From the NCBI GenBank assembly GCA_951812925.1, contig OX638371.1, positions 32,462,101 through 32,526,100 of the forward strand: a stretch of 64,000 nucleotides of DNA. Direction: 5' to 3'. A program made the position numbers and the translations under genes. The DNA comes from Calliopum simillimum. Taxonomy: Eukaryota; Arthropoda; Insecta; Diptera; Lauxaniidae. Positions 1,218-58,862 of this stretch are shown here, piece after piece (position 1 is the stretch's first letter; each line of letters starts with the position of its first letter). Below the pieces are notes generated by a model. It saw only the letters and a program-made list of their open reading frames with translations, was not told the DNA's origin and did no database searches.

Positions 1218-1218
1218 A

Positions 1219-1268
1219 TACTTTGGTGCCAGTTTTGCGGTAAAATTGTCGATCGCTTTCGACAAGTG
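1219..1268 (-). repeat. Inverted copy of an integrase segment (pairs with 1453-1502)
   Basis: The roughly 50 bases starting TACTTTGGTGCCAGTTTTGC are, but for two or three mismatches, the reverse complement of 1453-1502 inside the integrase coding region (residues SKAIDNFTAKLAPK). This marks the point where the upstream part of the gypsy element is lost; the fragment begins with a fold-back of its own sequence. Confidence 0.75.
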
Positions 1269-1270
1269 AA

Positions 1271-1640
1271 GTTACCGCAGGCACGGGAACAGCGAACCAA
1301 GGGCCGAAGGAACGGGCGACCAGACTGCGTGAGGTGTTCGAGCTCGTCAAACATCATCTAGCTCAAGCGGCGCAGAACCAGACGCGACACTATAATCTTA
1401 GAAGACTGCCGTGGAAGCCGAAAATCGGAGATCAAGTCCTAGTGTGGCAACATCACTTGTCAAAAGCGATCGACAATTTTACCGCAAAACTGGCACCAAA
1501 GTATGATGGTCCCTACCAGATTGTGGGATTCGTATCGCCAGTAATCGTTAAACTTACACGCGAAGGGGAACGGGGTGTTCGTAGGGCTCACCTTAGTGAA
1601 ATTAAAGTATATCACGACCACCACGTAGAGTGTCGTGAAG
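1271..1640 (+). pseudogene. Ty3/gypsy integrase C-terminal region (5' truncated)
   Basis: The frame is open from about 1271. It reads GPKERATRLREVFELV, then QTRHYNLRRLPWKPKIGDQV and KLAPKYDGPYQIVGFVSPVI, ending near RRAHLSEIKVY. This is the integrase tail of Ty3/gypsy retrotransposons: a basic YNLRRR-W stretch followed by the chromatin-binding-like GPY(F) segment. The zinc-binding and DDE core parts and everything upstream are absent; the left edge is an inverted copy of part of this same segment. The frame does not stop after the GPY segment but continues for about 90 codons into the kinase-like domain described next. Exact family within Ty3/gypsy is not determined. Confidence 0.85.
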
Positions 1641-1789
1641 TAGGTAACAATGCTCAGGAACTAATCAGTCTTTCCTTTCTCGTCACAGATAAAACATTTC
1701 GCAACATTCAACAAGCAAACCGTTTTTTTAAAACGACGGCGTATGTGCGGCCAGTACCCTTCATTCAACGCCCCAGCTTAGGCAAGAAG

Positions 1790-3151
1790 ATGGAGGCACA
1801 AGCTAAAGAAGCCGGAGAATGCGTGACCACTGCCTATTTCCGAAAAAGCCGATTTCTGGGTGCGGGGGCATTCGGAAAGGTGTTTGAGGTAACCAAGATT
1901 TTGGGCATCACTATGCATTAAAGGTGATGGATAAAAGCGAAGTCCTAGCACCACACCTAAGTCCGGAAGCGGCAATGGCGGAACGAAGAGTCTTGGAGAT
2001 GGTAAAGTCGGGGCCATTCCTGGCTAGAATGTACTATGCCTTTCAGGATGAAAAACAACTAAGCCTAGTATTCGAGTACGCTAGAGGCGGAGATCTCTTC
2101 GGCCATTTAAACGATGCCGGGAAGTTCCCCGAGGACCAAGTGGCGTTTTATGTCGCAGAGACCATATTGGCGCTCCAATTCATGCACCGGCAGAACATCG
2201 TGCACCGGGATGTAAAGGCGGAGAATATTCTCATAGATGGAGAGGGTCATGTGGTTTTGACGGACTTCGGGTTGTCCCAAATCTTCCCACCGGGCACGCG
2301 GCCCAGAACACCAGAATATTTGGCGCCCGAAATTCGGAAGATACGGCCACGCGGATATGGCCTCGCAGTAGATTGGTGGGCTTTAGGCATTCTGACCTAC
2401 GAGATGTTGGCAGGATCTCTTCCTTACACCGCCACAAGTGGGAGTGGAAAGGCGCATTGAAAGACTGATCGACACAGCCATACAAAAGAGTCGCTCGTTT
2501 TTGCTACAACTCCTAACGGTCGATCCGGCGAAGCGGCTAGGCAGTGAAGACTGCGGTGCTTCCGTCAGTCAACATCCCTTCTTGGCAGATATCAACTGGA
2601 TTGACCTTGTAAACCGGCGATTGAAGGCACCATACATACCTGCCAACGAAGCAGGACGGCAATCATCAGTGACAAACGAAGAATCGACCGATGACGACTC
2701 CGCCCCGATACACCATGTGATGATACCAAGGTACAGCTACGTTACTCGGCGCCAGTAGAAAAGAACGGTGATATATATAAGTGATAGCGAAGATGACGCC
2801 GACACGGCTGAATTTCCAGGAGTAAGTGGCCAGCGAACTCCGACGACATCCTTACTACAACCACAAGAGCTGACCGGGGATCAGGAACAGCCTCAAATGT
2901 TTCCATTACCACGACACAGCCAGACAATGCCATCCAAGCCGAGCGCTACACTAACAGAGATAACATCAGACCAGCGATCACCGATGCCCTGCGCGGAGCC
3001 AGTACCACAGAGCCCGGCAATGCCATCGGATTCGAGCGTGCTGACACCCCCAGAACAGGCCCTAGAGTCCAGAGAGGCACCAAATCTGCCCATTCCAATG
3101 CTCGAGGCCACGGTCGATGACGACCTATCAGGTTGGGAAGGACTCGCATAA
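1790..3151 (+). pseudogene. AGC-type protein kinase domain fused in frame to gypsy integrase
   Basis: Glycine loop GAGAFGKVFEV is in the integrase frame (about 1858-1890). YALKVMDK with the ATP-binding Lys follows one frame over, then ERRVLEMVKSGPFLARMYYA, catalytic HRD in IVHRDVKAEN (HRD codons at 2203-2211), DFG (2263-2271), APE (2323-2331) and DWWALGILTYEML. After a second frame change near 2430-2440 come DPAKRLGSE, HPFLADINW and RRLKAPYIP, the C-lobe end and start of the AGC tail. The set resembles S6K/RSK/MSK/JIL-1 kinases. The activation segment is about five residues shorter than usual and lacks the TFCGT phospho-site. An in-frame TAG lies at 2756-2758; the same frame then continues to TAA at 3149-3151 as an acidic, Pro/Ser-rich tail (SDSEDDADTAEF). 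Two frameshifts and one stop make it a pseudogene as it stands. It occupies the place between integrase and 3' LTR where env lies in other elements. Confidence 0.85.
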
Positions 3152-3525
3152 TTCACCCAAGACGAAGTTGAACAAATTCAAAGGTTTATTTCTGGGTTCA
3201 CGAAGCGGCACCGCAAACATCTAAGAATGATCACCGTGATCAACAGAAAAAGTTGAGAATAAAGACATGGGTCAACGGTAGAGTCGTAGTGACGCGACTC
3301 TGAGTGCATCGCCAAATTCGACAATCAAAAGAGTTCGCGAGAAGCGATGCCACCAAAATCGAAACTTGTGTCGAAAAGCCAGGCTAATTCCACCACAAAA
3401 CAACAACAACAGGGTGCACAATAGAAAGATCACCATTGTTCACAGCATCAACAACACCTGCAGTATGCACGACATCAGCACGACAAGCACGACGAAGGAT
3501 ACACGCTCCGGCGGTAAGGGGGAAA
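3152..3525 (+). other. Gypsy element 3' untranslated region
   Basis: No open frame of note. The stretch is richer in GC and CA than its surroundings, with a CAACAACAACA run near 3402, and leads into a polypurine tract. It reads as the non-coding segment between the last ORF and the 3' LTR. Confidence 0.5.
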
Positions 3526-3535
3526 TGTGAGGAAG
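3526..3535 (+). promoter_or_regulatory. Polypurine tract of the gypsy element
   Basis: AAGGGGGAAA lies directly before TGTGAGGAAG, which has the TG start of an LTR. In retrotransposons this tract primes plus-strand DNA synthesis. Confidence 0.6.
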
Positions 3536-3785
3536 TAAGTCGCCAACCCCTCATTAACGTCCACATCACGTGTGGAACCTGAAATTTTTCCGGGTAGTTT
3601 TTTTTATTATTCATAAATATATGTAGGTTTTAGTAAACAAAGTTATTTAAGTTAGGCGCGATGGATTTGTGTGCAACGCAACATCGGGCAACCAAAGATC
3701 GTTCGTGCAAACACGGCATAAGCAGATAGCACTGCTGCACTAGCGAACGCACTCACGACCAACGTACTATGCGCCTAATTACCGC
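3536..3785 (+). repeat. Putative gypsy 3' LTR
   Basis: It starts TGTGAGGAAGTAAGTCGCC right after the polypurine tract. There is no second LTR in the window to compare it with, so the right edge, set where a LINE fragment begins, is uncertain. The sequence has a different composition from its flanks, in keeping with a unit of its own. Confidence 0.5.
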
Positions 3786-3789
3786 ATGT

Positions 3790-4790
3790 TTCGTGCGCTA
3801 TCTGGTTTTACTCAAAGAACATTACTTACTGCTCTTAATGATGTCTTTTTAAGTGGTCAGGTTAAGGATTCTTGGAGAATTATTAAGATTGTGACAGTCC
3901 TTAGAAGAATTATAGAAATTTTCGGCCCATATCCCTAATTTCTGATTTCTTAAGTCCATCAATTTAATGATTAAAAACCGTTTAACCAAATGTATAAATG
4001 AGATAAATTTTCTTCCAAATAGGTGTTATGCCTATAGGAAAGGAAAGTCGGCTTCAATGTGCCTAAATGAGATTTTACATAGAATTGCGGTTCTTAAAAA
4101 TAGAAATTTTAAAGTTATTGGTCTTTTCTTAGACCTAATGTCTGATGTTAAATACACACTTTATATGATATTTTCACTAATTGTCGAATCGCTGACGCTT
4201 ACAAAAATTGGATCTTCGATTTTTTGGTTAAAAGAATACTTACGCTCGGAGTCGGTTGAGGTCAATAATGGACTTCCTAAGGGAAGTTGACTATCACTAA
4301 TACTTTTTAATATCTATACGAAAGATCTTCATAAGAATGAAGATGGAAATACTGAAGTTTATCAATTTGCTGATGTCTTCCTTATTTTATCCTATAATAA
4401 GGATTTTGATGAAGCTGTCAATAATCTAAACTATAAAGTTAATCAATTATCAAGGCTTTGTGAGCCATTAAACTTATCATTTAATGTTGAAACAACAAAG
4501 TCAATTTATTTTGCCAAGGGAAATCGTAAAATAGTCAGCATTTGGATAAACAATGCTTTGATTCAACAGGTTAATAAAATGAAGTTTCTTGGTAGAATAA
4601 TAAATTCATCACTTACTGTAGGTGAGCACTATGACAATGTTATAGAGGAGACATCCACGAGCACCAATCTTCTTAAATGCTTAACCACTGTTCAACGGCA
4701 AAAAATTTTCTGAGTTCAGACCATGAAATTATTATTCCTTGCTATTGACATAATAGAACTGCATTTACAAAATTTCTCCATCACGTCTCA
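3790..4790 (+). pseudogene. LINE (non-LTR) reverse transcriptase fragment
   Basis: Translated pieces in order: MFRALSGFTQRTLLTALNDV, KDSWRIIKIV, then MIKNRLTKCINEINFLPNRC, AYRKGKSASMCLNEILHRI, VIGLFLDLMSDV, VNNGLPKGS, LFNIYTKDLH, VYQFADVFLI, NLSFNVETTKS and NKMKFLGRIIN. This is the fingers-to-thumb order of a non-LTR reverse transcriptase, with the LDL...D and FAD (normally YADD) motifs decayed. Several stops and frame changes are present and both ends are missing. Clade not determined. Confidence 0.75.
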
Positions 4791-5392: not shown

Positions 5393-7146
5393 CACTAGTT
5401 TACAAATGATTAAAATTTTTTTTCCCAGCGAATGCCGTTACTCATTTTATATGGAAAATGGGCTGCTGATTCCGAAAATCGCATTTTTTTTTTTTTTTTA
5501 TTTCGTGTCGTTTTCGAGATATCGGTCATTTTCGGTTTTTGGACCAAAAAAAAAAGATAGTTCCACTTAAATACAAATATCTCAAGAACCAATGTTTGTA
5601 TTCAAACAAATAATATGTCATATTAAAGGTAATTAAATTACCTACAAATGATACTCACGCCACTTCTTGGCTCGTTTGTTAGTTTCGATGAAATAAATTG
5701 ATTTCTGAAAAAAAGAGAATATTTTTCCGAAAAAATTACAAAAATGTCTAAATCAACTGCAGATTTTTACAAGAAAAAAAAATTTTAAAAATCATTTTGT
5801 ATTTTTATATCATAGTCTATAAATTTGTTAGGCAAATAAAATACTATTTAAGAAAATCGTTGGAAAGATGCAAAAGTTGTATACAATTCATTGATAAGTT
5901 ACCAAAATGCGTTTTTCCCTATTTTTCCGTTTTTTTGTAATAAACTGTTCGAAAATTTGAAACTTTTTGTAAAAGAAATTAGAAAATCCAAAAAATTCTT
6001 AAAGAAGGCATTAAAAGGAAATACCCGTGCTTCGCCGTTTTTCTCTAGCACGTCAGATTTTTTTTTAATCGATTTTTGAAGTTTTTTAATCCACTGTACA
6101 TGAAAAAACAGAAATAACGCATTCTTGTGTTAAATCGATGAATTTAACTATATGATCCTTACATCTGAGGTGTATCATGTCTTCAGCAAACTTATGCAGG
6201 ATACTACGCGGAATATTTTTGTAGACAATTTTAACCCTCTCAAACCCCCACATGTAGGTCAAAATGACCTTCATGTGGGGGTCAAAATGACCCACATGTG
6301 AGGGTTTTAGAGGGTTAAAATTGTCTACAAAAATATTCCTCGCAGTATCCTGCATAAGTTTACTGAACTCATAATACACCCCAGATGTAAGGATCATATA
6401 GTTAAATTCATCGATTTAACACAAGAATGCGTTATTTCTGTTTTTTCATGTACAGTGGATTAAAAAACTTCAAAAATCGATTAAAAAAAAATCTGACGTG
6501 CTAGAGAAAAACGGCGAGGCACGGGTATTTCCTTTTAATGCCTTCTTTAAGAATTTTTTGGATTTTCTAATTTCTTTTACAAAAAGTTTCAAATTTTCGA
6601 ACAGTTTATTACAAAAAAACGGAAAAATAGGGAAAAACGCATTTTGGTAACTTATCAATGAATTGTATACAACTTTTGCATTTTTCCATCGATTTTCTTA
6701 AATGATATCTTATTTTCTTCACAAATGTATAGTCTATGATACAAAAAAAAAAAATATTATAAAAAAGTTATGTCTTCTTGTATAAATTTGAAGTTGAATT
6801 TGATTTTTTCTTAATTTTTTCGAAAAAAAAAATTTTTTTTTTTTAGAAATCAATTTATTTCACCGAAACTAACGAACCAACCAAAAAGTGAAGTGGATAT
6901 CATTTGTAGGTAATTAAGTTACCTTTAATATGACATATTATTTGTTTAAATAAAAACATTGGTATTTGAGATATTTGTATTTTAATGGAACTATCTTTTT
7001 TTTTTTGGTCCAAAAACCGAAAATGACCGATATCTCGAAAACGACACAAAATAAAAAAAAAAAAATGCGATTTTCGGAATCAGCAGCCCATTTTCCATAT
7101 AAAATGAGTAACGGCATTCGCTGGGAATTTTGGCTGTAAACTAGTG
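5393..7146. mobile_element. Long palindrome (fold-back element), arms about 875 bp
   Basis: CACTAGTTTACA at 5393 and TGTAAACTAGTG at 7135-7146 are the outer ends; the two halves are near-perfect reverse complements meeting near 6269, so there is almost no spacer. The centre holds CCCACATGTGAGGGTT-type sequence and the motif GGTCAAAATGACC. A 62-codon frame in the left arm (5891-6079) recurs identically on the minus strand (6470-6658), which shows that the arms are homogenised, not that the frame is a gene. No transposase is present. A diverged relative lies at 37558-38823. Confidence 0.85.
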
Positions 7147-9590: not shown

Positions 9591-10165
9591 CCATGTTGCT
9601 TTAGTCTGTGACGATCAGTTTCTTCTCGGACCTAGGTCAAGCCGTCGGTGTCCAGGATTCGATACAAAATTTCACTGATTTCACAGACAAAGGAAAAACT
9701 TAAATTTTTAATCACTTTATAATTCTTTTATTTCACTAAATGATGGCCAAACAGAAAGAGCATATATAATAAAATATAAAATAAAATGTTAATAAATTAG
9801 TTAATTAAATTTAAGTCCGTCCGCGTGGGAGAAGCCTGTAACCATCACTTTTCCCACCAGTCCGTTATGTCCGTCCGTTTGGGTCTACCTCGTGTCTAAG
9901 TCCCGTTCGTCCGTAAGGAAGCCGCTTGGTTCCAACACTTCTTCCTTGGTCTTAGTCATAGTCCTGTCCGTTTAATGAGTACGGTATAATTTTAATGTAG
10001 TCCCTGTGGTCGGCCTCCGTCGTTCACAATATTAAATAACCTTAGGATTGCGGAGCAATTCTTAGAACACGTCTTACCTAAATGATGGCCAAACAGAAAG
10101 AGAATTAGTCGATGCCGGAACCACCACCATTACGGCCATTCGACATCAACTCAACTCCCATAAGT
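9591..10165. repeat. GC-richer block with GTCCGT motifs and a 23-bp direct repeat
   Basis: GTCCGT recurs many times between 9814 and 9990. A 23-base sequence containing ATGATGGCCAAACAGAAAG is found at 9738-9760 and 10080-10102. This could be remnants of an LTR element, but no protein match is visible. Confidence 0.35.
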
Positions 10166-20731: not shown

Positions 20732-22035
20732 AAGGGTGTTTTTTTTAGAGGTTTGTTTTTCGAATAGAGATAAAACTGACATTTTGTGGTCAAATCTGGC
20801 AACTCTAATGTCATTTATGTTCAGTTTGGTTTACCATTGCATCATGAACAGGTTGACAAAAGAACAACGCTTGCAAATCGTGCAAATTTATTTCAAAAAT
20901 AATGGTTCAGTTCGCGAAGTTTACCGCAAGCTCCGTCCATTTTATGGTCGACATAATCGTCCATCAGAGCAATTAATTCGGTTAACCATGGGTCGTTTTC
21001 GCACTACGTTTACTCTATGTGATAATACGCATCCGCAGAGACGTCGAACAGTGCGCACCGAAGAAACAATTGCCGCTGTAGAGCAAAATGTTGAAGAGGA
21101 CCCGAATGAATCGATTAGCCAGCGTGCACAGCAATTGGAGCTTTGTCCATCAACTTTATGGAAGATTTTGCGCAAAGATCTTGGCTTGCGACCTTACAAG
21201 ATCCAGCTTGTGCAAGAATTAAAGCCGCGAGACCATGCAATGCGTCGTGATTTTGGTGTATGGGCCGAAAATGAGATTGATCTCGATGCTGATTTTCATC
21301 GCAAAATTTTGTTCAGTGATGAGGCTCATTTTTGGTTGAATGGCTACGTCAACAAGCAAAATTGCCGCATTTGGAGTGAAAAGAATCCACATGAGACCCT
21401 TGAGACGCCATTACATCCACAAAAACTGACTGTTTGATGTGCTCTATGGGCTGGTGGAGTCATTGGGCCATACTTCTTCCGAAATAATGCTGGAGAGTCA
21501 GTTACCGTTAATGGAGACCGGTATAGAGCCATGATAACCGACTATTTTGTTCCCGAATTGGATGGCATGAATGTGGATGAGTTGTGGTTCCAACAAGACG
21601 GCGCTACATGCCACACAGCGCACGTCACAATCGATTTATTGAAGGTAACATTCGATGAGCGCATAATTTCGCGGAATGGACCTGTCAATTGGCCACCAAG
21701 ATCGTGTGATTTGACACCATTGGATTATTTTCTTTGGGGATATGTGAAGTCGCTCGTCTACGCCAATAAACCAGAAACGTTAAGGGACTTGGAAGCCAAC
21801 ATTCGTGGCGTTATTGCCGACATACGGCCCCATATGCTCGAAAAAGTGGTTGAAAATTGGACCTGTAGAATTGGCTTTATTTGAGCCAGCCGCGGCGGCC
21901 ACATACCCGAAATCATATTTAAACATTAATGGCATAAAATTATCCTTCCAATAAAGCCAAATTGATGGACATTAAAACGATTTTCTTGTGCTTTATTTCA
22001 ATTCGAAATTCTATACCTCTAAAAAAAACACCCTT
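20732..22035 (+). mobile_element. Mariner-like element, 1304 bp, inserted in the LINE
   Basis: AAGGGTGTTTTTTTTAGAGG begins at 20732 and its reverse complement ends at 22035, with TA at 20730-20731 and 22036-22037. Taking the element and one TA away joins the two LINE parts in the same frame (PFCC then TKLLK), which confirms the boundaries. Confidence 0.9.
20844..21884 (+). pseudogene. Tc1/mariner superfamily transposase, one premature stop
   Basis: ATG at 20844 starts MNRLTKEQRLQIVQIYFK, the first helix-turn-helix; a second DNA-binding part follows (ETIAAVEQNVEEDPNESISQ). Catalytic positions are the D of ILFSDEAHF, the D of LWFQQDGATCH and the D of PPRSCDLTPLDY; I count 36 residues between the second and third. 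The only break in 347 codons is TGA at 21435-21437, next to CALWAGG where a Trp codon would be expected; the same frame then runs to TGA at 21882-21884. One stop and an otherwise open frame mean that it died recently or that a working copy exists elsewhere. Subfamily not assigned: the spacing differs from classical mariner (34). Confidence 0.9.
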
Positions 22036-47348: not shown

Positions 47349-48085
47349 GGCTGCTATATATGTATATTTCTGACTTAGGCAACACTAATGTCAATAGCTA
47401 AAATCTGGCAACTCCATAATAAAGTTTGACATTTTTTACCATAAACGTACTTAGAACGTTTTGACGTACGACCATAATTTGTGTTGTTTACAGTGACTTG
47501 AAAAAATCAATTTGGCAAAAAAATGGAATTAACTCGTGAACATTTTAGTGCGATCATTTTTCACAACTTTCGACGTGGATTATCACGACAAGAGTGCATC
47601 GATAAACTTAAATTTTTGTATGGCGATGAAGCTCCATCCTATAGCACTGTGAAAAACTGGTTTAATGAATTCAATCATAGCCGACGCTCGCTCAAAGACG
47701 AATTCCGCGAAGGTCGTCCAAAAACGGCCGTTGTGCCAGAGAACATTGATGCCGTGCGTGAACTGATAATGCACGATCGTCATGTGATATACCGTGAGAT
47801 AGAGGCATCCTTGGGCATTAGTTCCACTCCAATACATTCGGTTTTGCTTGAACACTTATTTGTAAAAAAGTTTGTTCTCTTTGGAAACCCCATAATTTAT
47901 CAATCGCTCAAATTATCAATGGAAAAATTAATTTTGTTAACTCACTGTAAACAAAACAAATAGCACTTGTACATCAAAACGTTGTGAGTACGTTTGTGCT
48001 AAAAAATGTCAAACTTTACTATGGTGTTGCCAGATTTCAGCTATTGGCATTAGTGTTGCCTAGGCCAGAAATATATATAGCAGCC
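47349..48085 (+). mobile_element. Internally deleted mariner element, 737 bp
   Basis: GGCTGCTATATATGTATATT at the left and AATATATATAGCAGCC at the right; TA at 47347-47348 and 48086-48087. Further inside, AATGTCAATAGCTAAAATCTGG and its counterpart also pair, giving long ends. The coding part is shortened by a deletion. Confidence 0.85.
47523..47963 (+). pseudogene. Mariner transposase, N-terminal part only
   Basis: MELTREHFSAIIFHNFRRGL, SRQECIDKLKFLYGDEAPSY and STVKNWFNEF form the first helix-turn-helix. RSLKDEFREGRPKTAVVPEN has the GRP hook, followed by the second DNA-binding part (VIYREIEASLGISST). About 115 residues are clear. Afterwards a frameshift and a deletion lead straight into the 3' terminal region, so the whole D,D34D catalytic domain is gone (usual length about 345 residues; here 146). 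A protein of this kind would bind DNA but not cut it; whether it is made is unknown. Confidence 0.85.
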
Positions 48086-52197: not shown

Positions 52198-52740
52198 GAG
52201 GCAGCGTTGGATTTTATACTGAGCCGTATACTGGAGTACGAAGTTTTCCCCCACGGAGTCTCAAGTACAAGGTCAGTGCGTGAAATATAAATTCAACTTT
52301 ATGCTATTGTCTCAAATTTTTTCGTGATTCATTTGTCAACTTTATTTGGTTTTTTTTTTGCCACTGGCGGCTCAAATTTTTTCGTTTTTTTTGGTGCGGT
52401 TTTTGACTCGGGTGCCATTACATCACGAGTTTTTTCATACGTTAGTCTTTCAAGGCCAATTTTACGACACCGTTGCTACGGTTCTTTGTTTGTCACGCCA
52501 CTTTTTTTTAAAAAAAAAGCAGATATCAAGGTTATTAAGGTTACACTGTGCATCATACAAAAATTTTTTCGTGATTTCATTTTCTTTTCAAACGAATTTC
52601 ATCAATTTTTTTGAAGATTCATTGTGCTTCAGTACATACACTGTTAAAAATTTTATAAATAAATTAAAAATTGTTTTGTGCTAAGCAAGGATTGCCTTTT
52701 TTATCAATTTTTTCGTGAGTTTTTGTGCAACTGTAACGAA

Positions 52741-53979
52741 ATGTCAGCCTTAGACATATTCATTCGTACGGCAGATCGCTTAGTTGAATACGAGGCTTAT
52801 TTTGTAAGCATTAAAGTTGAAGAGCATTCGCTAATTGCGTTAGAACTTGAGCAAGAAGAGCTCAAAAGTATTTGGACCATTGTGAAAAGTTCATATGAAG
52901 ATTGTCTCGCTGAATTAACTGACAGCGATGACGACGTCAAGGTCGTCAAGGCCAAATACCTTGAGTGTCACAAATGCTACATTCGTTCCATGACGGAAAT
53001 TAACAAATTTATAGCGGCTTTATCTCAATCAGTTCTACCAATTTCTACACCACAAAGTGCGAAAGACTCTGGCTCTAATATTAAGGTCCCACCATGTGAT
53101 ACAGATGTGTTTCATGGTAGTTATTCAACATGGCCAACTTTTAGGGATATGTTCACTGCTATCTATGTGAACAATAAGAGTCTCCATCCAGTAGAAAAAC
53201 TTTATCATTTATTGCAAAAAACAAGCGACGAAGCGAAAGAAATAGTGCAAAAAGCCCCTTTGACCAATGATGGTTTTCCTATTGCGTGGGAAAATCTTAA
53301 AGCTCAATACGAAAATAAAAGAATTTTGATTAATAACCAACTAAAAATTTTATTCAACTTGCCAATGATGACACAAGAGTCGGGAAGTAGCCTCAAACGT
53401 CTTCAACGTGATATAAATAACTGTATTGCATCATTACAGCTTTATAAAATTGACATAAAAAATTCGGACGCAATTTTTGTTTTTTTGTGCTCCACACGGC
53501 TTCCAGAGCAAAGCCTTGCACTGTGGGAACAATCAGTGAAAAATAAAACTGAAATTCCAAAATGGCTGGATCTCGATAGTTTTCTGACTGACCGGTTTCA
53601 GACTCTCGAGACCGTATCAGATATCCGTAGTTCCACATCTTCTCAGCCTGTTGTTTCAAAATCTACCAATGCTGTTCCAAAGTCCAAGTCCTACAACAAT
53701 TATCACAATAAAATCGATTTTTCTCAGTGTAGGCTGTGCAAGGATTCTCATCCTTTACGATCTTGTTCTAAGTTTCTCAAAATGAACTTTCAAGATCGAT
53801 TTTCAACAGTAAAGCAGTACCACTACTGCCTTAATTGTCTCTCTGCGTCTCATGAAATAAGAGATTGCCAGAGTGTTAATACTTGTCAGACATGTAAAAA
53901 GCAACATCATTCGCTTTTACATAAAAACACTACAAGTGCACAGCAATCTACCTCGACACAAAAGTGCTACCGGCACTAA
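52741..53979 (+). CDS. gag: BEL/Pao Gag
   Basis: The first ATG of the frame, at 52741, gives MSALDIFIRTADRLVEYEAY, a helical N-terminus. The middle has FHGSYSTWPTFRDMFTAIYV and KLYHLLQKTSDEAKEIV, the DUF1759 type capsid region of BEL/Pao Gag. The C-terminus carries three zinc-binding motifs: CRLCKDSHPLRSC, CLNCLSASHEIRDC and CQTCKKQHHSLLH. Gag would package RNA and form the particle. The frame stops at 53979 after a frame change near 53960; the protease continues in the next frame. Whether this is a decayed junction or a programmed shift cannot be decided from one copy; most BEL/Pao elements have a single gag-pol frame. Confidence 0.9.
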   Translation: MSALDIFIRTADRLVEYEAYFVSIKVEEHSLIALELEQEELKSIWTIVKSSYEDCLAELTDSDDDVKVVKAKYLECHKCYIRSMTEINKFIAALSQSVLPISTPQSAKDSGSNIKVPPCDTDVFHGSYSTWPTFRDMFTAIYVNNKSLHPVEKLYHLLQKTSDEAKEIVQKAPLTNDGFPIAWENLKAQYENKRILINNQLKILFNLPMMTQESGSSLKRLQRDINNCIASLQLYKIDIKNSDAIFVFLCSTRLPEQSLALWEQSVKNKTEIPKWLDLDSFLTDRFQTLETVSDIRSSTSSQPVVSKSTNAVPKSKSYNNYHNKIDFSQCRLCKDSHPLRSCSKFLKMNFQDRFSTVKQYHYCLNCLSASHEIRDCQSVNTCQTCKKQHHSLLHKNTTSAQQSTSTQKCYRH

Positions 53980-54300
53980 ACCAAAGCAACCAATTGTTTC
54001 TACAATAAGCTCTTCTGTGTCTCATGCTACAACCATACAGTCCACTAATTCGAATTCAAATCCTATAGAAACTGTTCAAACTTGCTTCAATGCTGTCACC
54101 AAAAAAGTTTTACTTGGTACAGCTATAGTAAACGTTTTTCATCTTGGGATTACATATAAAGCTCGGGCACTTATTGACCCAGCATCCGAAGGTACATTTA
54201 TTTCGGAACGCCTTCGAAATTTATTAAAACTCCCCACCAAAGCTGTATCGGCTCAAGTGTCTGGTTTAAATGGCGCCATCAGTATAAAACCTACTCATCA
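53960..54300 (+). pseudogene. BEL/Pao protease domain
   Basis: Reading in the frame after the first shift: VLLGTAIVNVFHLGITYKAR, ALIDPASEGTFISERLR and LPTKAVSAQVSGLNGAIS. This is a retropepsin-like A17/DUF1758 domain; the usual D-S-G-S is D-P-A-S here, with the Asp kept. A second frame change near 54300 returns to the Gag frame, where GSLSDSSVQIEVTALVV and later DMLIGGDLYPLVI complete the domain. It would process Gag-Pol. Confidence 0.8.
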
Positions 54301-57300
54301 TTTTATATTGGATCTCTTTCTGATTCAAGTGTACAAATTGAAGTCACTGCACTCGTTGTACCTCTAGTCACTGGAAATATGCCCTCGCATTCTTTTGACC
54401 CATCTTTATATCCAGAGCTGCCAAAGCTCCACTATGCTGATGCCAATTTTTTCCAAAGCTCGACCATTGACATGTTAATTGGTGGTGATTTATATCCACT
54501 AGTAATTCTTGACGGAATCCGTAAAGGAATTTTAGGTACTCTTGTTGGCCAAGAGACCGTGTTCGGGTGGATACTTACGGGACCAGTTCCGGATCCACAA
54601 TCTAATATGCAAAACAATACTATTGTTTCTTATTTCATTGAAGTTTCTCTAAACGATCAACTTAGTAAATTTTGGGAAATCGAAGAGATCCCTTCAAAAT
54701 CGCCTGTCTCACAATCAGATGCCTTTTGCGAAGAACTTTTCACTAAAACTGTGTCGAGAAATGGCCGTTACATAGTTAATTTGCCGTTCAAAGCTTCCTT
54801 TATGAAACAAATTAATCTTGGCTTTTCAAGACATATTGCCATTTGTCAATTTCTACGAAATGAAAAGTCTCTTCTTCGAAAGCCTGAATTTAAAACCGAA
54901 TATGATAAGGTTGTCAATGAATATATTGAACTTGATCATATGAAAAAAGTTGATTCGCCATCTCAACCAAGTTCTTGTCACTTTTATTTACCTTACCATG
55001 CGGTAGTAAAACCGGAAAGTACAACCACAAAAATTAGGGTTGTATTCAACGCTTCTAGCAAATCGTCGAATGGCACTTCTCTTAATGACGTTCTTCATAC
55101 AGGCCCTGTGCTTCAAAATGATCTCGTGTTGTTAATCCTTAAATGGAGATTTTTCGCATATGTTTTCAATGCTGATATACAAAAAATGTATAGGCAGATT
55201 CTTATTAATCCTCAACATTCACCATATCAAAGAATTGTATTTCGTGACTCTGATGATTTAGCAATAAATGATTTTGAGCTGAAAACTGTCACCTTTGGGG
55301 TGAATTGCGCTCCATATCTTGCAATAAGGACCCTGTTACAACTAGCTGAAGATGAGAAACTTCGTTTTCCACTTGGCTCGAAAATTCTAATGGATTCGAT
55401 GTTCGTTGATGATGTTTTGGCTGGCGCACATGATATTTCAAGCGCAAAAGAAGCCCGCAATCAACTCATTGGAATTCTTGAGAGTGCAGGATTTTATTTG
55501 AGAAAATGGACGTCAAATTCTGTGAATTTTTTAGAAGATTTGCCTCGCGACCATCTCCTTAACGCAGATTTCTTGTCTCTAGAAGATAAAAGCACGGCCA
55601 AAACGCTTGGAATTTTTTGGAACGCTATCACAGACTCGTTTCATTTCCATGCTTTGCCTTTGCAGTTAAAAAATTCTTACACAAAAAGAGAAGTTCTCAG
55701 CATGATTGCCAGATTATTTGACCCAGCTGGTTGGCTCTCTCCCGTTATAATAACGGCAAAAATAATAATGCATCAGTTGTGGCTCGAAAAAATTGACTGG
55801 GATGACAACTTAAAACCGGTATCATTGAAAAAGTGGCAAAATTTTGTGTCTAATTACACGAAAGTAAAATTAATTTCAATTCCGCGATGGGTTCAATTCT
55901 GCCCTACTGGTAACATTGAGTTTCATGGTTTTTGCGATGCCTCTGAAAAGGCATATGCAGCCGTTTTGTATGTGCGAATCGAAAATGGCAACAAAATTCA
56001 TTGTAATCTTCTTTTTTCAAAAACAAAAGTGGCTCCGATCAAAACACTGTCTCTCCCACGTTTGGAGCTGTGTGGAGCTGTTCTTCTCGCAAAAATGATC
56101 GATTCGATAACCCCACATTTGAATATTGGCTCCAGTTCATTGTTTCTCTGGTCAGATTCAACTATAGTTCTTTCGTGGCTCAAAAAACCACCATGTACTT
56201 GGACGACTTTCGTCGCAAACAGAATTTCCACAAAAGTTGAAAAGGTTGGCAGCGATAATTGATCCCATATTGATACGCATTCCAATCCAGCCGATCTAGC
56301 AACCCGGGTGGTATACCCTGCAGAATTGATATCTAATAATTTGTGGTGGCATGGACCATCTTGGTTACAGATGCCTAAGTCTCAATGGCCAGAAAATTCA
56401 TTGTAACACAATTTGGATACCACACTTGAAATCAAAAAAATCCAATCTCATTTTACTAGATCGGCGGTGTGTGAAGACATACTTGAAAAATTTTCTTCAT
56501 TACCAAGAGCTTTTCGTATTTTATCATATGTATTCCGTTTCTTCAAACGAACACATCCATTGACTCGAGCTGAAGCATCATTTCCAAACACTACCATATC
56601 AGTTGCTGAAATATGCTCAGTCAAACTTCGGCTAATCATCCTTTCACAACAACTTCACTTTCAAAATGAATATAATAATTTAAGCGACAAAATTTCGATA
56701 TCTTCCAAAAGTACAATTTTGACAATGACTCCATTTTTAGATAGTCAAAAGGTGATCAGAGCCAATGGTCGCCTTTCTTCCTCCATATCACTCACCTATA
56801 ATGAACGACATCCTATTCTCCTATCTAACAAAAGCAGATTTGCGCGATTGTTGGTCCACTACATACATGAATTATCACTTCACGGTGGCAATCAGCTTGT
56901 GCTGCGTCTCGTCCGACTAGAGTTTTGGATTCCAAAAGTCAAAAACTTAATAAAAACTGCCATACATAATTGCAAAATTTGTGTTGTCAACCGGAAAAAG
57001 TTGCAAGGTCAAATTATGGCTGCCTTGCCACCTTTAAGAACATTTTTAGATCGTCCTTTTACAAATACGGGTCTCGATTTCGCCGGGCCTTTTGAGATTA
57101 AAAGCTTCACTGGTCGCTATTGTCGCGTCACGAAAGGATACGTATGTCTCTTTGTGTGTTTCGCGACAAAAGCCATTCACTTAGAACCTGTTAGTGATCT
57201 TTCAACGCCAGCTTTCCTCGCAGCACTATCACGCTTTATTGCACGAAGAGGTTGCCCTAGTCGAATTTATTCCGACAATGGTAGAAATTTCGTGGGAGCC

Positions 57301-57978
57301 TCAAAAGAATTAGCTAGAGATCTTGAAAACTTCACTAAACGTGTACGCGATGATGTTGTCTCAAAATACAGTTTACAAAAACTTTCTTGGCACTTTATAC
57401 CTGCGTCTGCGCCTCATATGGGAGGTCTGTGGGAGGCCGGTGTAAAAAGTTTCAAGCAACATTTTCGCAAGATAGCTAGTCAAATCAAATATACATTTGA
57501 AGAGTTTGCAACTGTACTATCGCGTATCGAAGCTTGTCTCAACTCGCGTCCACTTAGTCCCTCTTCTGAAAATGTCTCTGATCTTGCCGTGTTGACTCCT
57601 GGTCACTTCCTGATTGGCTCACCTCTACTGGCTCTACCTGAACCAGAGGAAAATTTTAGCTCGATCTCCATCAACAATCGCTGGCGGCGCCTAAAAGCTA
57701 TGCAACAGGAGTTGTGTCGACGATGGAAGGACGAGTATTTAAAAGAGCTGCACAAAAGGAATAAATGGCAAAATCCCCAATTAAATATCCAAAAAGATGA
57801 CATGGTTATTGTACGTAATGAACTTGTAGGCCCCTCGGAGTGGCGATTAGGTCGTATCATTAAAGTATATTTTGGCTCTGATAAACGTGTTCGTGTGGCT
57901 GATATTCTGACACAAAACGGTGTTATCACGAGGCCAATCCATAAACTTGTCATCTTACCTACTGAACCTGACCAATAG
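54301..57978 (+). pseudogene. pol: BEL/Pao Pol: reverse transcriptase, RNase H, integrase
   Basis: One frame with two stops (TGA 56260-56262 after VGSDN, probably a former Trp codon; TAA 56404-56406). Reverse transcriptase: YHAVVKPESTTTKIRVVFNA, FNADIQKMYRQILINPQ, FGVNCAPYLAIRTL and the FVDD catalytic box (55402-55413). RNase H: FHGFCDASEKAYAAVLY, LSLPRLELCGAVLLA and LWSDSTIVLSWL. Integrase: zinc-binding HELSLHGG with CKICVVNRKK, then the catalytic D in NTGLDFAGPF, D in IYSDNGRNFVG and E in PHMGGLWEAGVK, and the tail VIVRNELVGPSEWRLGRI. All catalytic residues that I can check are present. It ends with TAG at 57976-57978. The clean catalytic set despite two stops fits recent decay of an active lineage. 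Confidence 0.95.
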
Positions 57979-58068
57979 TCTCCTATCGAGCATTAGTCCC
58001 GTGATTAGTATGTCTCACCTATATCAAAATCAGCAATATTAGAAATAAGAACTTTACTCGTATCATTT

Positions 58069-58094
58069 TTTACATTTCATCTTATATTTTTTAG
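58069..58094 (+). promoter_or_regulatory. Strong candidate 3' splice site before ORF3
   Basis: TTTTACATTTCATCTTATATTTTTTAG ends four bases before the ATG at 58099. A long pyrimidine tract plus AG directly upstream of a downstream ORF is the layout by which env-like genes of insect retroelements are expressed from spliced RNA. The matching donor is not identified. Confidence 0.55.
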
Positions 58095-58098
58095 AAGT

Positions 58099-58862
58099 AT
58101 GAAGCGTCGTTTATACAACAGAAAGTACCAGTGTCCGATCTGTCATGCGGATCACTCTCTACGATTTTGTCGCCGGTTTCACGCTATGAATGCGGCTTCT
58201 CGCAGGGAAACTGTCCAAAAACACGATGGGTGCACAAATTGTCTCGCCATGTCACATGAGCTTCGTTCGTGTGAAAATGAGCAACGCTGCCGCATTTGTC
58301 ACAGCCGACATCATACCTTGCTTCACCTGCACGAGAAACTAGAAATACCAACACCAAATTGTCCTCGGTTCGTATCCCAGCCAGAGATAAGTGACCTTGT
58401 CGTTACGTTAAAAATGACGGTTTTGGTCGAAATCATGACAGATTATGGTCCAAAAGTGATTCGTGGTCTTATCAACCCAGGTCAAGACCGCACCACTATT
58501 TCATTCAGTGAAGTGCAACGACTAAGGATCAAGGTGTTTGAACATCAGCAGTCATGTAACTTAATGCTACGATCGAGGCACAATCCAGATGATTCAGTAT
58601 GGGTAATCGCATTGGTGGAGAAAACTGAATATGGTAAATTTCCACCGTTCAAGCCTAGTCGCGATCTAATCTGCTCGAACTGGCCGACAAGTACTATTGG
58701 GGTACATATAAGGTGAATTTTGTTATCGGAGCCGACTTGTTTGCTCAAATTCTGCGTGGTGAGCCGCGTACTGCACTTGATGCTCCTGCAGCAATTCCAA
58801 CTATATTCGGCTGGGTGTTCTGCGGCAACGTAAAACGTGCACCAAATACATCGTTGTATTAA
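58099..58862 (+). pseudogene. BEL/Pao third ORF: zinc knuckles plus DUF1758 protease-like domain
   Basis: ATG at 58099, right after the candidate acceptor. The product starts MKRRLYNRKYQCPICHADHS and has three zinc motifs (CPICHADHSLRFC, CTNCLAMSHELRSC, CRICHSRHHTLLH) in the same order as Gag. Then comes a protease-like domain: VEIMTDYGPKVIRGLINPG, where the catalytic Asp of the LID(S/P)-G-type motif is Asn. After TGA at 58714-58716 the next frame reads VNFVIGADLFAQIL and TIFGWVFCG, the end of the DUF1758 domain, stopping at 58860-58862; so one frame change has occurred near 58690. Compared with the element's own Gag and protease it is clearly diverged and GC-richer. Likely origin: a captured gag-pr segment of another element or a host DUF1758 gene. 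Alternative: the remnant of an older BEL/Pao copy into which this one recombined. Confidence 0.8.

What the first reader, a model, noticed from the sequence alone, without database searches (positions are those of the whole stretch)
1271..3785. Ty3/gypsy element that seems to carry an AGC protein kinase between integrase and 3' LTR
Seen: the integrase C-terminus (YNLRR...GPYQIVGF) runs in the same frame into a kinase glycine loop; then VAIK-, HRD-, DFG-, APE- and AGC-tail motifs follow, an acidic tail, a polypurine tract and an LTR-like TG start. Known: host gene capture by LTR elements is rare, and the slot after integrase is where env is usually gained. Inference: a retrotransposon lineage transduced a JIL-1/MSK/S6K-like kinase. 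The short activation segment without the TFCGT site suggests altered regulation or loss of function.
Basis: partly seen in the sequence, partly recalled or inferred. Interest (0 to 1): 0.88.

Follow-up and report, generated by a model that had tools for sequence, protein, structure and literature searches.

The report
Retrotransposon lineage carrying MSK/JIL-1-type kinase
A family of retrovirus-like jumping genes in a fly genome carries its own copy of a host-derived protein-kinase gene where related elements keep their third gene, and the kinase looks conserved across three sub-lineages, so it probably does something for the element.

Summary
The window copy is a broken relic; other copies in the same genome settle it. 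One (C2:80166160-80172449) has identical 877-bp LTRs, a 4-bp target duplication, a primer site, an integrase and an uninterrupted 574-codon kinase frame. I scored 20 kinase loci in three lineages, A, B and C. A broken C copy reads zinc knuckle, protease, RT, RNase H, integrase, kinase. Element kinases form one clade (100/100) in or beside MSK/JIL-1; a sister link to the fly's own JIL-1 appears in one tree (93/95) and is unresolved with more rows. Kinase and integrase trees agree on B,(A,C) at moderate support. A-B synonymous change is saturated while the kinase domain stays 55% identical: purifying selection. An acceptor-like site precedes a conserved MKR start. All three lineages lost the activation-loop phosphosite and share a SUMO-binding-like motif. 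Best mechanism, inferred at about 0.35: a self-encoded chromatin kinase opposing silencing. There are no expression or activity data; only one genome could be searched.

The parts
1218..1279 (-). 62-nt inverted duplicate of integrase DNA (arms 1218-1279 and 1443-1504) at the rearranged 5' break of the element
1267..1657 (+). C-terminal part of the Ty3/gypsy-type integrase (94% aa identity to the integrase of the C2:80.17 Mb copy)
   Evidence: SH3_Tf2-1 match below the Pfam cut-off
1668..1688 (+). splice-acceptor-like site, same place as in the other lineages
   Evidence: 16 of 19 pyrimidines before YAG
1737..1738 (.). junction where 166 bp present in the C2 copy are missing, including the kinase start region; puts integrase and kinase in one frame
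1738..2640 (+). AGC-type kinase domain, MSK/JIL-1 group, broken by frame changes and a small deletion in the activation segment
2641..3300 (+). kinase C-tail with hydrophobic motif, acidic stretch and element-specific C-terminal segment, in broken frames
2768..2788 (+). SUMO-interaction-like motif VIYISDS
   Evidence: frame 2759-3151; pattern test on the other copies
3514..3525 (+). polypurine tract
   Evidence: same kind of tract before the 3' LTR of the C2 copy
3526..3785 (+). first part of the 3' LTR (LTR bases 1-313, 73% in a gapped alignment)
9607..10159 (-). LTR bases 318-877 (92%), read as the rest of the same LTR, displaced and inverted

Best explanation
SHOWN: a lineage of Ty3/gypsy-type LTR retrotransposons carries, between integrase and 3' LTR, an intronless kinase gene of AGC type, in or next to the MSK/JIL-1 group; the kinase has gone with the integrase through three sub-lineages (A, B, C) and was kept under purifying selection; the window holds a broken A copy. 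INFERRED, likely: an ancestor took up the N-terminal kinase domain and C-tail of an MSK/JIL-1-type mRNA once, and the protein is made from a spliced RNA, as env is in insect endogenous retroviruses. INFERRED, about 0.35 (lowered from 0.4 after one search left the JIL-1 sister link unresolved): the protein goes to chromatin (SUMO-binding-like motif, basic start) and acts as an H3-type kinase without the usual activation-loop control, keeping the element's copies from being silenced. Some copies split the functions: the C2 copy keeps the kinase without RT; the C6 and C4:33.43 copies keep pol and lack the kinase body.
For: C2 copy: LTRs 877/877 identical, TSD CACT, primer site, purine tract, integrase, 574-codon kinase frame without stop. 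Second uninterrupted kinase frame, B lineage, directly after an integrase tail at C3:2.04 Mb. gag-to-kinase order in the C5 copy; pol pieces, integrase and kinase in line at C1:46.44 Mb. C6 copy: LTR matches on both sides, pol, acceptor, 31-residue kinase start, kinase body gone. Trees: element kinases one clade 100/100; with MSK/JIL-1 100/99 or 89/91 with long rows kept; kinase-lineage integrases one clade 94/93; order B,(A,C) in both genes. Selection: A-B kinase domain pS 0.77 (saturated), pN 0.28, 55% identity; cluster duplicates L021-L014 dN/dS 1.3. Glycine loop, lysine, HRD, DFG and APE intact in A and B. The fly's own JIL-1-like gene has intron-like gaps in the domain, the element kinase none. 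In Drosophila JIL-1 opposes heterochromatin spread and activates telomeric retrotransposons (PMC6877644, passages).
Against: No RNA or protein evidence; one genome only. The best 120 listed of 1134 and of 750 protein hits include no close relative (top identity 44%), but retroelement frames are often left out of annotations. Only 2 full-length kinase frames were seen. The L062 copy has uninterrupted gag and pol frames and no kinase body, so not every copy needs it. The acceptor is weak in lineage C (499 and 206 of 5000 shuffles as good). Sister link to JIL-1: 93/95, where I had left out four rows (three of them flagged as long there); unresolved; the nearest row was a long S6K-like one (83/78). 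RSK is not firmly rejected (p-AU 0.065). One search left B,(A,C) unresolved. One C copy (L014) reads DFE for DFG. PMC6877644 reports only small H3K9me2 changes on JIL-1 loss in cycling cells, and its telomeric elements are non-LTR.
Confidence: 0.8

Rival explanations
1. Captured kinase, but its target is not chromatin: it phosphorylates the element's own Gag or integrase, or host signalling proteins that favour cells carrying the element, like a retroviral oncogene.
For: Selection and position say nothing about the substrate. The C2 copy resembles a replication-defective transducing retrovirus. The exact parent kinase within the MSK/JIL-1 side of the tree is unresolved.
Against: MSK/JIL-1 ancestry and the conserved SUMO-binding-like motif point to the nucleus; both are indirect.
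Confidence: 0.45
2. Passenger: the kinase is a captured, functionless retrocopy that hitchhikes.
For: 18 of 20 scored loci show no full-length kinase frame in the DNA held; kinase-less derivatives exist.
Against: Two uninterrupted frames at 42% overall and 55% domain identity with saturated synonymous change; catalytic motifs kept.
Confidence: 0.05
3. A host kinase gene lies next to unrelated gypsy debris by chance, or is a domesticated gene.
For: The B copy at C3:2.04 Mb has an uninterrupted kinase frame, only an integrase tail, and no LTR pair in 9 kb.
Against: LTR pair and TSD around the kinase at C2:80.17; integrase upstream at 9 of 20 loci; the native JIL-1-like gene is separate.
Confidence: 0.03
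4. The three lineages captured kinases independently or swapped them by recombination.
For: Between lineages the kinases are only 39-55% identical, depending on pair and region; fork support is moderate (94/90, 92/89; integrase 94/93, 93/92) and one search left the order unresolved.
Against: Element kinases form one clade apart from the native kinases included, share the phosphosite change and tail motif, and the resolved topologies match.
Confidence: 0.05

Closest known systems
JIL-1 / MSK (RPS6KA5) kinases
   Same: Kinase domain and hydrophobic-motif C-tail; tree position
   Different: One kinase domain instead of two; activation-loop Ser/Thr replaced by Arg/Lys; different N-terminus and tail
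Insect endogenous retroviruses (errantiviruses) with env as third ORF (PMC12992720, passages)
   Same: Third gene after pol, with an acceptor-like site before it
   Different: The third gene is a kinase; LTRs run TG..CA; that paper's passage reports third ORFs as env and only in the gypsy/gypsy clade
Acutely transforming retroviruses carrying host kinases (recalled)
   Same: Transduced host kinase in an element that lacks replication genes (C2 copy)
   Different: Here the kinase is old, shared by three sub-lineages and also found behind pol (C5 and C1:46.44 copies)
Maize Bs1 retroelement (PMC13317346, passages)
   Same: LTR element with transduced host gene segments
   Different: That review says none of the Bs1 segments was full-length; here a whole catalytic domain is kept under selection
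VANDAL elements with VANC anti-silencing proteins, Arabidopsis (PMC10398659, search-listing abstract)
   Same: Works-like comparison only: an element-encoded factor that counteracts its own silencing
   Different: Plant elements with sequence-specific proteins, no kinase; the function is only inferred here

Membership tests
Ty3/gypsy LTR retrotransposon (Metaviridae) | paired LTRs with TG..CA ends and target-site duplication | tested here: met
   C2 copy, 877/877 identical, TSD CACT
Ty3/gypsy LTR retrotransposon (Metaviridae) | tRNA primer site and polypurine tract | tested here: met
   the label tRNA-Lys type is recalled
Ty3/gypsy LTR retrotransposon (Metaviridae) | zinc knuckle, protease, RT, RNase H, integrase in that order | tested here: met
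   C5 copy L012-L013, Pfam matches; of the two protease models one is just under and one just over its cut-off
Ty3/gypsy LTR retrotransposon (Metaviridae) | named clade (osvaldo, mdg3, mdg1, chimpo or gypsy) | not tested
   no named reference RTs at hand; one search gave dipteran integrase relatives without clade names
AGC protein kinase, MSK/JIL-1 group | protein kinase fold with catalytic motifs | tested here: met
AGC protein kinase, MSK/JIL-1 group | C-tail with hydrophobic motif | tested here: met
   GYSYV / GYSYA / NFTYA
AGC protein kinase, MSK/JIL-1 group | groups with MSK/JIL-1 in a tree | tested here: met
   100/99; 89/91 with a long S6K-like row also inside; weak (66/25)
AGC protein kinase, JIL-1 itself | sister to the fly's own JIL-1 | tested here: inconclusive
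   93/95; unresolved, not rejected (p-AU 0.57)
AGC protein kinase, MSK/JIL-1 group | activation-loop Ser/Thr before CGT | tested here: not met
   Arg or Lys in A, B and C
AGC protein kinase, MSK/JIL-1 group | second, C-terminal kinase domain | tested here: not met
   one Pkinase stretch only in A and B
Errantivirus / insect endogenous retrovirus | third ORF is a fusion-type envelope | tested here: not met
   kinase families only in the A and B proteins
Transposon-encoded anti-silencing factor | relieves silencing of the element | not testable with these tools
   inference only

The most novel reading that the evidence does not exclude
An animal LTR retrotransposon lineage has turned a host anti-heterochromatin kinase of the JIL-1/MSK group into a standing element gene: freed from activation-loop control and aimed by a SUMO-binding motif at piRNA-directed silencing complexes, it keeps the element's own copies open. 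Sister families in the same genome keep other third ORFs in the same slot, so the slot may be where these elements trial anti-host genes.
Probability: 0.3. Interest if true: 0.95.

Novelty: new variant of a known kind. Interest (0 to 1): 0.85.

Why it matters
Capture of host genes by retroelements is mostly known as fragments or as recent oncogene transductions. Here a complete catalytic domain has stayed in the third-gene slot long enough for its lineages to diverge to synonymous saturation. JIL-1 protects active chromatin and supports retrotransposon expression in Drosophila (PMC6877644, passages), so an element owning a kinase of that group gives a direct handle on whether animal transposons encode their own counter-silencing enzymes.

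Tried and rejected
Chance adjacency to a host kinase gene: rejected (LTR pair, TSD, 20 loci). Independent captures: disfavoured by the trees. Sister link to the fly's own JIL-1: seen, but not upheld when every row was used, so stated as open. A shared C-terminal domain between the kinase ORF and third ORFs of sister families (L063, L070): tempting by eye, but a profile search gave L063 E 4.9, no better than shuffled sequences; not claimed. Relatives in IMG/VR contigs: none by kinase alignment or integrase. Proteins: no close kinase relative among the best 120 listed of 1134 and of 750 (where only 8000 candidates were scored). Integrase relatives exist in Bactrocera, Drosophila and Calliphora (best 120 listed of 271); the 6 I read end without a kinase, which says little, since a third gene would be a separate frame. 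Literature: searches listed no paper whose title or abstract start speaks of a kinase-bearing LTR element; others found no papers, 50, 79 and 81 gave capped lists; most subscription papers are not held.

Full report
What was given. The window is C4:32462101-32526100 of an unnamed 690-Mb genome, taken to be a fly from its kinases and from dipteran integrase relatives.

Is it there? Yes. Frame 1244-1921 joins integrase and glycine loop, 1888-2457 is a kinase core (Pkinase E 6e-47), and the LTR begins at 3526 after a purine tract. The copy is broken: frames change, the activation segment is short, 166 bp between integrase and kinase are missing, and about 0.77 kb present in the C2 copy is missing before the 3' LTR. 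LTR bases 318-877 lie at 10159-9607 on the other strand, most simply by an inversion.

Other copies. Kinase DNA hits 8 places; kinase protein hits 79 places, native kinases included (76 of 274 candidates scored, so a lower bound). Scored against A, B, C and native kinases (20 loci, one of them held in two pieces): A: window, C2:80.17, C1:89.09, C2:57.83, C2:86.53, C4:40.26; B: C3:2.04, C5:84.80, C1:60.69, C4:41.39, C2:86.73, C1:62.12; C: C5:64.30, 64.31, 64.18 (one duplicated cluster), C1:46.44, C3:46.78, C4:35.72, C2:92.34, C1:108.52. By bits C1:46.44 scores highest with A (209 against 191), because the C queries are partial; by identity it is C (79% against 55%). C2:92.34 was scored for C only with its own N-lobe piece and is placed in C because that piece is 79% identical to C3:46.78. 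C1:108.52 is a weak C (60%). Of 11 further places fetched to classify, 6 were native kinases. Other hits were left unclassified or are native by reading (names partly recalled).

Anatomy. The C2 copy (L009:1161-7450) has identical 877-bp LTRs, ends TGTGAGG..TTACA, TSD CACT, a primer site, a gag N-terminal piece joined to integrase, a 574-codon kinase frame and a purine tract. It lacks RT, so it was presumably moved in trans, and recently (0 of 877 LTR differences). The C5 copy, over two adjoining loci, has a gag N-terminus, zinc knuckle, protease, RT, RNase H, integrase, then the kinase interrupted by repeats. C1:46.44 has pol pieces, integrase and kinase in line. C6 (L061) has gag and pol pieces, LTR matches on both sides (93% and 96%), the acceptor and 31 kinase residues, then no kinase body. 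L062 (C4:33.43) has uninterrupted gag (407) and pol (1058) frames, the B-type integrase end, the acceptor and what I read by eye as a remnant of the kinase C-terminus (not tested).

Expression slot. A pyrimidine tract with YAG follows the integrase end in 6 of 6 loci read (window, L009, L046, L023, L025, L013); an MKR start follows in 5, and the window has lost it. Shuffles reach the observed score in 34 (L009), 2 (L046), 206 (L047), 1 (L025) and 499 (L013) of 5000, so lineage C alone is weak. Of 8 sister-family regions, 4 (L063, L065, L066, L070) hold third ORFs of 523, 1043, 378 and 519 codons without a kinase; L064, L067, L068 and L069 show nothing comparable.

Ancestry. Element kinases are one clade in all three trees (100/100). 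Their place: weak (66/25; nearest a long S6K-like row, 83/78); inside MSK/JIL-1 (100/99) and next to own JIL-1 (93/95), built without the long rows; with all rows on the MSK/JIL-1 side (89/91), own JIL-1 pairing with the Glossina JIL-1-like protein (98/99) and the sister link unresolved. RSK p-AU 0.065. B,(A,C): 94/90, unresolved, 92/89. Integrases of the kinase lineages: clade 94/93, A+C 93/92 (one C row 37% filled). The own JIL-1-like gene has intron-like gaps in the domain, the element kinase none, so capture through RNA is likely.

Selection and chemistry. L009-L046: 520 codons, 42% identity, pS 0.76, pN 0.40; kinase domain 288 codons, 55%, pS 0.77, pN 0.28; tail 126 codons, 27%, dN/dS 0.33; cluster duplicates L021-L014 1.34; L009-window core 0.57. 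Glycine loop, lysine, HRD, DFG and APE are present in A and B; in C the L021 piece has DFG, L014 DFE. The model has 261 residues at pLDDT 90 or more; best PDB matches are AGC kinases. The best PDB match by sequence of the window core is MSK1. The activation-loop site is Arg or Lys in A, B and C. The motif [VI][VI].[VI]SD[STDE] is in all three tails, in 1 of 354 other fetched proteins and in 8-10 of 20000 shuffled tails.

Mechanism. JIL-1 phosphorylates H3 Ser10, limits heterochromatin spread and activates telomeric non-LTR retrotransposons, though its loss changed H3K9me2 only slightly in cycling cells (PMC6877644, passages). SUMO is linked to piRNA-guided silencing (titles and abstract starts; detail recalled). 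A de-regulated kinase of this group with a SUMO-binding-like motif may act against silencing: inference, about 0.35, lowered from 0.4 because one search left the parent gene open; the novel case goes from 0.35 to 0.3. Action on Gag, integrase or host signalling is at least as likely.

Known or new. Host-gene capture by LTR elements is known (Bs1, PMC13317346, passages; viral oncogenes, recalled). Third ORFs of this virus family are reported as env in PMC12992720 (passages). My searches listed no kinase-bearing LTR element.

Noticed in passing
window 3946-4713: Two frames that read like a non-LTR reverse transcriptase fragment, directly after the LTR break; no Pfam match (label from memory).
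   Followed up: no
window 52663-58713: Long frames (438, 694, 523 and 235 codons) that read like a BEL/Pao-type element (label from memory).
   Followed up: no
window 20733-21434 and 47502-47960: Frames with helix-turn-helix-like sequence as in mariner-type elements (label from memory).
   Followed up: no
window 5422-7127: Nested inverted repeats, the largest with 490-nt arms 93% complementary and 10 nt apart.
   Followed up: no
L009:1161-2037 (LTR): The LTR holds two copies of a 28-nt stretch; the first is followed by GTAAG, the second ends in TAG, so the piece between looks like an intron inside the LTR.
   Followed up: no
L063, L065, L066, L070: Sister families keep large third ORFs after integrase (523, 1043, 378, 519 codons) without a convincing Pfam match, one with a SUMO-binding-like motif; L066 has an acceptor-like site with 17 of 19 pyrimidines.
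   Followed up: partly
L046:4566-6209 (C3:2.04 Mb): Uninterrupted B-lineage kinase frame with only an integrase tail and no LTR pair in 9 kb; could be a domesticated copy.
   Followed up: partly
P0005: Glossina austeni JIL-1-like protein with the kinase C-lobe sequence repeated and Asp at the activation-loop site.
   Followed up: no
L012, L013, L014 (C5:64.18-64.31 Mb): Three kinase copies in a region of about 130 kb full of near-identical repeats.
   Followed up: no
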